Assembly: GCA_025056255.1 (NCBI GenBank)
Contig: JANWVT010000010.1
Span: forward strand, 6,662-70,661
From: Bernardetiaceae bacterium
GTDB taxonomy: Bacteria; Bacteroidota; Bacteroidia; Cytophagales; Thermoflexibacteraceae
Direction: 5' to 3'
Length of the DNA: 64,000 bases
Shown here: positions 53,565-56,506 of the stretch, piece by piece
Position numbering within the stretch: position 1 is the stretch's first letter
How the letters are laid out: the number at the start of each line of letters is the position of its first letter
Notes under the pieces: model-generated
What the model was told of the DNA's origin: nothing
The model's input: the letters and a program-made list of their open reading frames with translations, nothing else
Databases searched by the model: none
Position numbers and translations under genes: made by a program

Positions 53565-53609
53565 TTGCAATTGAGTTGCATTTTTATATTTTTGCAACTC
53601 AATTGCAAA
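53565..53609 (+). promoter_or_regulatory. Receptor promoter with two palindromic operator sites
   Basis: Promoter: TTG (53565-53567), 19 bp, TATTTTTG (53587-53594). Left arm TTGCAATTGAGTTGCA (53565-53580) and right arm TGCAACTCAATTGCAA (53593-53608) are perfect reverse complements, 12 bp apart. Each arm is itself a palindrome with 5-bp spacer; the right one is TTTGCAA-CTCAA-TTGCAAA (53591-53609). One site covers the -33 element, the other the -7 element. The 19-bp size and receptor gene suggest a Fur-family repressor such as Zur; that is inference. Confidence 0.8.
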
Positions 53610-53614
53610 AAGTA

Positions 53615-55915
53615 ATGCGTGTGCTATTTACTTTATTACTTGTACAAATCCCCGCAGTGTGTGCACAGGCGCAAGAGCAGCCTTGTAAGGGGCGCATAGC
53701 AGGTAAAGTAGTAAACAGTTATACGCGACAACCCATTGCGGGTGCCTCGGTGCAGCAGATGAACGACAGTAGCAAAGCCCTGGTAACCAATGCCGACGGC
53801 ACTTTTGCCCTCAATCAATGTGAGCGATTGGCGCAAATCATCATTAGCAAAGCAGGTTTCAAAGATGCCGTTTATACCCTGCCTGCAGGCGAGGAAAAAG
53901 TACTGCCGCTGATTCCCGAAACGCTGGAACTTGCAACCGTTACCGTAACTGATGAGCGAATCAGTACCGGAAATGCGGCGACTACACTGGCAACCGTTTC
54001 CGATGAGGCACTTACGCGCAAACAAGGCAAAGGACTCGCCGAAGTTCTTGGCGACATTAGCGGAGTGCAGGTGCTGCGCAACGGCGCGACCATTGCCAAG
54101 CCCATTATTCAGGGTTTGCACGGCAATCGCATTTTGATTTTGAACAATGGTATTCGTCAGGAAGGGCAGCAGTGGGGTTTAGACCACGCTCCTGAAATAG
54201 ACCCCTTCATGGCGTCGCAACTGACCGTAGTCAAAGGGGCGGCTGCTGTGCAGTACGGCGCGGAAGCAATAGGCGGCGTGGTGCTGGTCAATCCACCGAA
54301 GTTGCCTACACAGGCAGGTATCCGCACAATGCTGCACCTGCAAGGGGCAAGCAACGGCAGGCAGGGCATTGCATCGGGGCAGGTAAGCGGCTACCACAGC
54401 GGCATTGGCTGGCGGGCACAACTGACCCGCAAACGCAGTGGCAATGTGCATACGCCTAATTATTTCCTTGCTAATACGGGCGTAAGCGAAACCAACTTCT
54501 CGCTGGCTGCGGGCTACCAAAAAGAGCGCTACGGCGCGGAAGTATTTTTCAGCCGTTTTAATACCGACTTAGGCATTTTCAGAGGTGCACACATTGGCAA
54601 CCTAACCGACCTACAATTTGCTATCAGTAGCCCACGCCCTGTTGTCAGCTCCGACTTCAGCTATCAGATAGATAACCCGCGTCAGGCAGTTACGCATAGT
54701 CTTTTGAAAATCAATGGATATTGGAAAAAATCGCAAGGCGAATGGCAATGGCAATACGGCTTTCAGCACAACAAGAGGCAAGAGTTTGACATTCGCCGCG
54801 GCGGGCGCGACAACATCCCCGCCCTTGACCTGAACCTGTTCACGCACACTTTGGACGCAGTTTATGAGGCAGGCAAAGGCAGTGCTTGGCAATGGAAAGC
54901 AGGCTTCAATGGCATTGTACAAAGCAATCTGAACACGCCCGGCACGGGTATTCGTCCCTTAGTACCGAACTATTGGGTAACGGCGGCAGGTACTTTTGCT
55001 ATTTGGAAATACTCGGCAACCCGTTGGGATGCCGAAGCGGGCATTCGCTACGACCTGCGCCACATGGAAGTGCGCCGATTTGACCGCAACAACGTTTTGC
55101 AGCGTACCGAAAGGCTGTTTAATAACATTTCGGCAACAGTGGGCGCAGCGTATTACGTCAGCGAAAAAACCACCTTGCGCTCGCAATTAGCCTCTGCATG
55201 GCGACCGCCCGCACCCAACGAACTATACAGCGAAGGGCTGCACCACGGCGCGGCAGCCTTAGAGTTCGGTAGCGACAGCCTCAAATCGGAACAATCGTGG
55301 AAATGGACAAACGGCATAAGCCTGAAAACCGACAATATCAGTCTGGAAATCAGCGGCTTTGCCCAGTATATCGGCAACTACATCTACCTTGCCCCGCAAG
55401 GCGAAACACGGCTGACTATTCGCGGAGCGTTCCCTGTTTTCCATTTTGAACAAACCAATGCGCGACTTGCAGGTGCTGATTTAACGCTGCACTGGCAACC
55501 TTGGGCACAGTGGGAAACATGGTTGAAAGGCTCAATGGTACGCGCCCGCGACCTGACCAATGGTGCATTTCTGCCGTGGATTCCGCCCGACCAAGCATCT
55601 GTCTCCTTGCGTCGCAACTTGCTACTGCCTTCGGAAAGTCGTTGGAAAGGGGCTTATGCCTCGCTTAGCTGCATAGTTGCGGCGCAACAATGGCGTGTGG
55701 ATGTAGAACGCGACTTTGCGCCCCCTCCTCGGGGCTATACGCTGCTCAATTTTGACAGTGGTATTCGCTATGAACACGGCAGGCAAGCATTGCATATCGG
55801 TTTTTCGGTGCATAACCTCACTAATGTTGCTTACCGCGACTACATGAACCGATTCCGCTACTTCGCCGATGAGCAAGGACGGAATTTTCAACTCTACCTG
55901 AAATACACATTGTAA
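53615..55915 (+). CDS. TonB-dependent receptor, ZnuD-like
   Basis: 766 residues from the ATG at 53615, which follows the operator by five bases and begins the signal peptide MRVLFTLLLVQIPAVCAQAQ; an in-frame TTG at 53576 lies inside the operator and is rejected. A carboxypeptidase-like domain (about 25-105) precedes the plug: LAEVLGDISGVQVLRNG, GLHGNRILILNNGIRQEG, DHAPEIDPFMASQL and VVKGAAAVQYGAEAIGGVV. The DHA-x-x-(I/V)DP wording is shared with ZnuD-type zinc receptors. The barrel ends LYLKYTL. Likely metal uptake, probably zinc, from the motif and the operator. Confidence 0.85.
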   Translation: MRVLFTLLLVQIPAVCAQAQEQPCKGRIAGKVVNSYTRQPIAGASVQQMNDSSKALVTNADGTFALNQCERLAQIIISKAGFKDAVYTLPAGEEKVLPLIPETLELATVTVTDERISTGNAATTLATVSDEALTRKQGKGLAEVLGDISGVQVLRNGATIAKPIIQGLHGNRILILNNGIRQEGQQWGLDHAPEIDPFMASQLTVVKGAAAVQYGAEAIGGVVLVNPPKLPTQAGIRTMLHLQGASNGRQGIASGQVSGYHSGIGWRAQLTRKRSGNVHTPNYFLANTGVSETNFSLAAGYQKERYGAEVFFSRFNTDLGIFRGAHIGNLTDLQFAISSPRPVVSSDFSYQIDNPRQAVTHSLLKINGYWKKSQGEWQWQYGFQHNKRQEFDIRRGGRDNIPALDLNLFTHTLDAVYEAGKGSAWQWKAGFNGIVQSNLNTPGTGIRPLVPNYWVTAAGTFAIWKYSATRWDAEAGIRYDLRHMEVRRFDRNNVLQRTERLFNNISATVGAAYYVSEKTTLRSQLASAWRPPAPNELYSEGLHHGAAALEFGSDSLKSEQSWKWTNGISLKTDNISLEISGFAQYIGNYIYLAPQGETRLTIRGAFPVFHFEQTNARLAGADLTLHWQPWAQWETWLKGSMVRARDLTNGAFLPWIPPDQASVSLRRNLLLPSESRWKGAYASLSCIVAAQQWRVDVERDFAPPPRGYTLLNFDSGIRYEHGRQALHIGFSVHNLTNVAYRDYMNRFRYFADEQGRNFQLYLKYTL

Positions 55916-55942: not shown

Positions 55943-56506
55943 ATGTTCAATTTGCGTACAGGCTTTTATGCCCTACTATTGACCATTGTTGTGTTGAGCG
56001 GGTGCAACCGCAAAGACCCGGAACCTGAGAATGAGAAAGAGGAAATTAACCGCATGGAAGTAGTGTTCACTCCTGTTACGGGTGGCAATAGTGTTACTTT
56101 CCTGTTTAGCGACCCCGACGGCGAAGGTGGCAATCCGCCTACTATTACCGCCCCTCCACTTCGCGCCCGTACTACCTATAACGTAACCATTACGCTCTCA
56201 AAAGACAAAGATGGCAAGCGCGAAGATAAAACTGCTGAAATTCGTGCAGAAGCCGATGAGCATCAGTTTTTCTTCATCATCAATCCTGCCACGTTGATGA
56301 CGCACCGCTACGACGATGTGGACAAAAACAACCGTCCCTTGGGTTTGCGCAACATCGTGGAAACGCAAGCAGCAGGTAGCGGCACCATGCGCATTGTATT
56401 GCGCCACGACCTGAACAAGGCTTTCCCGAACCTGAACAATACTAACTTCCAGCAGGCAGGCGGTGAAACCGATATTGACGTAACATTCCCCGTTACGGTG
56501 CAGTAA
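55943..56506 (+). CDS. Small lipoprotein, partner of the TonB receptor
   Basis: 187 residues. Lipoprotein signal ending LTIVVLSGC, then an acidic linker (KDPEPENEKEE) and a beta-rich domain (MEVVFTPVTGGNSVTFLF, SDPDGEGGNPP, ADEHQFFFII). Histidines and acidic residues are plentiful. It follows the receptor by 27 bp and shares its terminator, so it probably belongs to the same uptake system as a surface or periplasmic binding partner. Family not recognised. Confidence 0.75.
   Translation: MFNLRTGFYALLLTIVVLSGCNRKDPEPENEKEEINRMEVVFTPVTGGNSVTFLFSDPDGEGGNPPTITAPPLRARTTYNVTITLSKDKDGKREDKTAEIRAEADEHQFFFIINPATLMTHRYDDVDKNNRPLGLRNIVETQAAGSGTMRIVLRHDLNKAFPNLNNTNFQQAGGETDIDVTFPVTVQ

What the first reader, a model, noticed from the sequence alone, without database searches (positions are those of the whole stretch)
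53565..53609. Twin palindromes cover both promoter elements of a ZnuD-like receptor
Two 16-bp arms are perfect reverse complements, each is itself a palindrome built on TTGCAA-N5-TTGCA, and they sit exactly on the -33 and -7 elements. This is a textbook place for a dimer-of-dimers repressor. The 19-bp site is the size Fur-family proteins use and the receptor has ZnuD-like DHA wording, so it is a candidate Zur box for this group.
Basis: partly seen in the sequence, partly recalled or inferred. Interest (0 to 1): 0.68.

Follow-up and report, generated by a model that had tools for sequence, protein, structure and literature searches.

The report
Twin zinc-repressor boxes over a promoter
Two matching repressor-binding sites sit on both halves of the promoter of a zinc-receptor-like gene, and the same site stands before zinc genes in many related bacteria, so it is very probably this group's zinc (Zur) switch.

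Summary
Observation confirmed. 53565-53580 and 53593-53608 are perfect reverse complements. Each belongs to a 17-bp operator, WTGCAAY-NNN-RTTGCAW (53565-53581, 53592-53608). A -7 element (TATTTTTG, 53587-53594) ends on the first TTG of operator 2; the -33 TTG is the first TTG of operator 1.

The motif is conserved: before 56 of 103 orthologous receptors at spacing 3, and 0-1 at spacings 0-2 and 4-10. Across 59 order-level genomes it has 158 places against 51 for a one-base spacing control. Neighbours form a zinc-starvation set: ZnuD-like receptors, COG0523/ZigA-like GTPase, MerC-like, AztD-like and ZIP proteins, GTP cyclohydrolase I, Fur-family regulators. The own genome has one Zur-type and one Fur-type regulator; the Zur type tracks the motif (39/44 versus 6/15 genomes, p=0.0004).

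Best reading: a Zur box of Cytophagales, not found in the held literature; zinc-loaded Zur dimers cover -33 and -7. Tight twins are mirror copies more often than chance. Zinc binding and repression are untested; zur itself mostly lacks a box (1 of 30).

The parts
53565..53581 (.). Operator 1 (TTGCAATTGAGTTGCAT), covers the -33 element
   Evidence: conserved in four genomes of the genus and in ortholog promoters
53592..53608 (.). Operator 2 (TTGCAACTCAATTGCAA), overlaps the end of the -7 element and the predicted start region
53565..53567 (+). -33 element (TTG), inside operator 1
   Evidence: offset of the -7 element from boxes peaks at +22 to +25 in 142 promoters
53587..53594 (+). -7 element TATTTTTG (consensus TAnnTTTG), last TTG shared with operator 2
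   Evidence: conserved in the genus
53615..55915 (+). ZnuD-like TonB-dependent receptor, 766 aa from ATG 53615
   Evidence: Pfam plug and barrel; best solved chain ZnuD 4rdr, 4.4e-14; ZnuD model score 93.3 bits, below its cut-off of 950
55943..56506 (+). Lipoprotein (187 aa) downstream, probably co-transcribed
   Evidence: 47% identical to a lipoprotein that has its own twin box in L153; no Pfam family

Best explanation
The 44-bp palindrome is a double operator for the zinc uptake repressor Zur. Zinc-loaded Zur (the 141-aa Fur-family protein at G000:C107:89736-90158, locus L019) binds two 17-bp boxes, WTGCAAY-NNN-RTTGCAW, as two dimers. One box covers the -33 element, the other the end of the -7 element and the predicted start region, so RNA polymerase is shut out. 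When zinc falls, Zur leaves and the ZnuD-like receptor and the lipoprotein behind it are made. Shown by computation: the motif, its conservation, its fixed place on the promoter, its zinc-type regulon and its co-occurrence with Zur. Inferred: that Zur is the binding protein, that zinc is the signal, and that binding represses by occlusion.
For: Strict motif in 56 of 103 unique receptor-ortholog promoters at spacing 3, 0-1 at other spacings, shuffles mean 0.045 and maximum 1. 158 places versus 51 for the spacing control in 59 genomes; 66 of 80 examined groups upstream and outside genes versus 7 of 29 control groups. Neighbours: MerC 13, CobW 5, FUR 5, TonB plug 7, GTP cyclohydrolase I 3 of 102 genes; ZigA-like and AztD-like; ZIP. 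The -7 element starts at -5 (40), +22 to +25 (40) or +33 to +35 (19) from the box in 142 promoters. Zur-type protein present: motif in 39 of 44 genomes; absent: 6 of 15. L019 groups with box-adjacent Fur-family proteins and not with L018 and best matches FurB/Zur 2o03 among solved chains. Box 18-22 bp before zur in three genomes of another family. Operators and -7 element conserved in the genus while flanks diverge.
Against: No binding or expression data. Only 1 of 30 L019-type loci has a box within 500 nt, and the own zur has none. Of the 103 promoters, 41 lack even the core, and only 6 of these have a strict site further upstream. The own genome alone has 4 strict places against 2 control places. 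The genome co-occurrence test ignores kinship. Four Zur-positive genomes (G009, G040, G042, G045) have no strict site, nor does G023, whose match is weak. An MbnP-type protein, a family named for copper, is also preceded by a box.
Confidence: 0.87

Rival explanations
1. The boxes are operators of a Fur-family regulator that senses another metal (copper, nickel or iron), and the receptor imports that metal or a chelate.
For: The receptor scores higher against a heme receptor model (158.7 bits) than against the ZnuD model (93.3), both below cut-off; OprC, a copper porin, is the next solved relative after ZnuD; an MbnP-type protein carries a box.
Against: ZigA-like GTPase, AztD-like protein and ZIP transporter are zinc families; L019 is closest to the zinc regulator FurB among solved chains, if weakly; the Fur-type L018 does not track the motif clearly (43 of 54 versus 2 of 5, p=0.08).
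Confidence: 0.08
2. The palindrome acts as an RNA or DNA hairpin: a terminator of the upstream gene or a leader structure that controls translation.
For: The strand folds as RNA at -24.7 kcal/mol, z -5.1.
Against: No terminator-like site is found at the palindrome and no T run follows either arm. The -7 element lies between the arms, so most of the hairpin would not be in the transcript. Most promoters with the motif show a single box, which makes no long hairpin, and wide twins are not mirror copies. In G001 the arms no longer match perfectly but both boxes are kept.
Confidence: 0.03
3. The palindrome is a chance pair of a common hexamer (TTGCAA) with no function.
For: The loose form is near chance in the window, and the own genome holds 2 control places beside 4 strict ones.
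Against: Spacing specificity, upstream placement, promoter phasing and conservation while the flanks diverge.
Confidence: 0.01

Closest known systems
Zur boxes of other bacteria (review PMC6103462, passages)
   Same: Palindromic site of a Fur-family zinc repressor. Twin boxes on -35 and -10 are described for S. coelicolor znuA and B. subtilis yciC; E. [quoted passage not shown]
   Different: Described boxes are 9-1-9, 7-1-7 or 23-bp palindromes in the passages read; here the box is 7-3-7 with a TTGCAA core and sits on Bacteroidota -33/-7 elements. In tight twins the boxes are mirror copies, which the passages do not mention.
Zur regulons with COG0523 genes (PMC2770081, passages)
   Same: Same logic: Zur sites before COG0523 genes and before paralogs that can replace zinc enzymes.
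   Different: The paper used taxon-specific motif profiles; the searched words Bacteroid-, Flavobacter- and TTGCAA do not occur in its main text, and Cytophaga occurs once, in a UreG table.
ZnuD zinc receptor (solved as 4rdr)
   Same: Closest solved relative of the receptor, 4.4e-14 over residues 104-283.
   Different: Scores 93.3 bits on the curated ZnuD model with cut-off 950; carries a CarboxypepD_reg-like N-terminal domain.

Membership tests
Zur operator / Zur regulon | A Fur-family regulator of Zur type is encoded | tested here: met
   L019: Pfam FUR 1.4e-10, best solved chain FurB/Zur 2o03, groups with box-adjacent Fur-family proteins. No curated NCBIfam cut-off is reached (Zur model 32.2 bits, cut-off 167).
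Zur operator / Zur regulon | Palindromic operator conserved before orthologous genes | tested here: met
   56 of 103 promoters; spacing and shuffle controls
Zur operator / Zur regulon | Operator overlaps promoter elements | tested here: met
   three preferred offsets of TAnnTTTG in 142 promoters; start sites inferred, not mapped
Zur operator / Zur regulon | Targets are zinc uptake or zinc-sparing genes | tested here: met
Zur operator / Zur regulon | Site before zur itself (common, not universal) | tested here: inconclusive
   1 of 30 L019-type loci; other Zur-type genes beside boxes in L155, L191, L218, L221, L286, L290, L295, L299
Zur operator / Zur regulon | Zinc-dependent binding and repression | not testable with these tools
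   needs gel shift and expression data
ZnuD receptor family | Curated ZnuD model NF038289 above its cut-off | tested here: not met
   93.3 bits against a cut-off of 950; so ZnuD-like, not filed as ZnuD
Intrinsic terminator | G+C-rich stem with short loop followed by a T run | tested here: not met
   no terminator-like site at the palindrome; no T run after either arm

The most novel reading that the evidence does not exclude
The Zur boxes of this group use three fixed seats on the promoter (on -7, on -33, one helical turn above -33). When two boxes take the tight seats (starts 24-33 bp apart) they are kept as exact mirror copies, spacer bases included. That suggests a two-fold symmetric four-subunit Zur complex that reads the inner bases, or a mutational process (template switching between arms) that keeps making the palindrome perfect. 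Mirror pairs: 8 of 13 tight twins (null mean 1.1, maximum 5 of 2000), 6 of 11 after collapsing three genus-mates (null mean 0.55, maximum 4 of 10000); wide twins (34-46 bp) 3 of 21, p=0.08.
Probability: 0.4. Interest if true: 0.6.

Novelty: new variant of a known kind. Interest (0 to 1): 0.55.

Why it matters
I found no Zur box for Cytophagales or other Bacteroidota in the held library (searches; subscription papers are not held). A specific 17-bp box gives each genome a short, testable list of zinc-starvation genes, including little-studied ones (MerC-like proteins, His-rich lipoproteins, an MbnP-type protein, a pyridine-nucleotide oxidoreductase, small proteins ending in RAPP). The promoter phasing also offers a clean place to study how two dimers of a Fur-family repressor share one promoter.

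Tried and rejected
Loose TTGCAA-N5-TTGCAA scans were too unspecific; the reversed-pattern control printed by the tool has a different composition, so I used a spacing control instead. One of the three exact loose sites in the own genome (L002) lies inside an ORF and fails the strict form; dropped as chance. In G014 the four strict places lie in or beside genes with no zinc link, and G014 has no L019-type match. Terminator and RNA hairpin readings were tested and set aside. My ORF caller labelled 12 N3 groups intragenic; at least two are miscalls by spurious frames (L150, L155), and it hid the MerT-like gene of L147, found by three-frame reading. The first genus alignment took one genome on the wrong strand and was redone. 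Paper searches for a Bacteroidota Zur box found none (calls named under Why it matters).

Rows dropped: of 110 receptor loci, 4 for short upstream DNA and 3 as duplicates. Of the strict places I examined the neighbours of 80 groups, mostly leaving out receptor promoters already seen; the listing was cut short. Of 51 control places I examined 29.

Full report
What is there. The arms 53565-53580 and 53593-53608 are perfect reverse complements, 12 nt apart. Read as operators, the unit is 17 bp, W-TGCAA-Y-NNN-R-TTGCA-W, at 53565-53581 and 53592-53608. TATTTTTG at 53587-53594 fits the Bacteroidota -7 consensus TAnnTTTG, with a TTG 19 nt upstream (consensus from the one passage read of PMC7366714). 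ATG 53615 follows; in two genus-mates an in-frame stop directly precedes this ATG, so the TTG at 53576 is not the start.

Is it more than chance? In the window and own genome alone the case is modest: the loose motif is near chance, and the strict form has 4 places in 3.39 Mb against 2 for the spacing+1 control. The four places are three promoters: the receptor twin, a MerT-like plus His-rich lipoprotein unit (L147), and an MbnP-type protein (L148). The MerT match is weak (5.7e-5, below cut-off).

Comparative evidence is strong. I gathered 110 loci of receptor orthologs, giving 103 unique promoters. The strict motif occurs in 56 at spacing 3 and in none at spacings 0-2, 4 and 6-10 (one at 5); 200 sets of dinucleotide shuffles gave a mean of 0.045 and at most 1. 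Of the 41 promoters without the core, six have a strict site further upstream. In one of these a Fur-family gene lies between, and in four a small gene; in three of those four the small protein ends in RAPPxx, in the fourth (L121) in a KDPP tail. Over 59 order-level genomes (own included) the strict motif has 158 places in 45 genomes, the spacing+1 control 51 in 29. Of the places whose neighbours I read, 66 of 80 groups are upstream and outside genes, against 7 of 29 for the control.

What the motif marks. Among 102 genes on either side of the examined groups (divergent bystanders included), Pfam finds MerC 13, TonB plug 7, CobW nucleotide-binding 5, FUR 5, Pyr_redox_2 4, GTP cyclohydrolase I 3 and peptidase M28 3. 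A COG0523-type GTPase (L156) scores 566.6 bits against the ZigA cut-off of 600, and a lipoprotein (L152) matches AztD at 3.2e-26, below its cut-off. A ZIP transporter is adjacent in L200. The lipoprotein downstream of the window's receptor is 47% identical to one with its own twin box in L153. This is the composition of a zinc-starvation regulon (established knowledge of Zur regulons; PMC2770081 and PMC6103462, passages).

Which protein. The own genome has two Fur-family proteins. L018 is Fur-like (best solved chain a ferric uptake regulation protein, 6d57, 1e-21). L019 is closest to the zinc regulator FurB, 2o03, among solved chains (9.7e-6) and to the Fur-family genes that sit beside boxes in relatives (E 2e-20 to 1e-39), while its match to L018 is not significant. 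L019-type proteins are found in 44 of 59 genomes; the motif is present in 39 of these and in 6 of the 15 others (p=0.0004). L018-type proteins are in 54 of 59; motif in 43 of 54 and 2 of 5 (p=0.08). These tests ignore kinship. Against simple autoregulation, only 1 of 30 L019-type loci has a box within 500 nt. In three genomes of another family of the phylum the box stands 18-22 bp before a Fur-family gene of this group, and in those genomes other boxes stand before COG0523 or TonB receptor genes.

Promoter phasing. In 142 promoters with a strict box, TAnnTTTG starts at -5 from the box (40), at +22 to +25 (40) or at +33 to +35 (19), and at most 3 at any other offset. So the box's TTG is the end of the -7 element, or the -33 element, or lies one turn above it. 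Twin spacings of 27-29 (9 pairs) and 38-40 bp (16 pairs) are the differences between those seats. A published parallel is the pair of Zur boxes on -35 and -10 in S. coelicolor znuA and B. subtilis yciC (passage of PMC6103462).

Mirror twins. For twins 24-33 bp apart, 8 of 13 are mirror copies in all five variable bases (re-paired null mean 1.1, maximum 5 of 2000). With the three closest genus-mates collapsed it is 6 of 11 (null mean 0.55, maximum 4 of 10000). A further example seen later is L286, not in the count. Wide twins (34-46 bp) show no clear effect (3 of 21, p=0.08). The cause is open: symmetric protein contacts or template switching.

Reach. In 118 genomes spread over the phylum strict places number 7 in 5 genomes of the same order, 29 in 24 of the same class and 38 in 89 others, so the motif thins out with distance; no spacing control was run there. 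Of 20 stretches read, Zur-type, COG0523 or TonB receptor neighbours occur in genomes of one outside family (G080, G159, G167) and a Zur-type neighbour in G075, while G114, G118 and G163 have other neighbours.

Limits. No experiment. The start site is inferred. The metal is inferred from the regulon. Subscription literature was not searched; papers were seen only as search listings or the passages cited.

Noticed in passing
L083, L106, L117, L121 and other receptor loci, ORF just upstream of the receptor: Many receptor orthologs without a box of their own follow a small secreted protein (about 105-150 aa, His-rich) ending in RAPPxx or RGPPxx; in four loci the box stands before that small gene. 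No Pfam match for L106 and L078.
   Followed up: partly
L147:3109-3471 (G000 contig C52): The own-genome box at C52:60147 precedes a 121-aa MerT-like ORF hidden under a longer spurious frame, followed by a lipoprotein with a His-rich stretch; a relative has the same order.
   Followed up: partly
L165, L178, L182, L189, L299: A pyridine-nucleotide oxidoreductase recurs directly behind the box in several genomes, an unexpected member of a zinc regulon.
   Followed up: no
L066, L072 (Parapedobacter receptor promoters): No strict box, but a wider inverted repeat with GTTGCAT and GCAAC arms and a longer spacer lies near the start; it may be a variant operator.
   Followed up: no
L300, L301 and G144, G155: TTGCAATTGAGTTGCAT, identical to operator 1, occurs in four genomes of one distant family; in L300 and L301 it is 58 nt before a 143-aa ORF of unknown function.
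   Followed up: no
L297, L298 (G114): Four strict boxes lie within 9 kb; where ORFs follow (L297) they do not look zinc-related, one resembling a restriction-type protein by eye.
   Followed up: no
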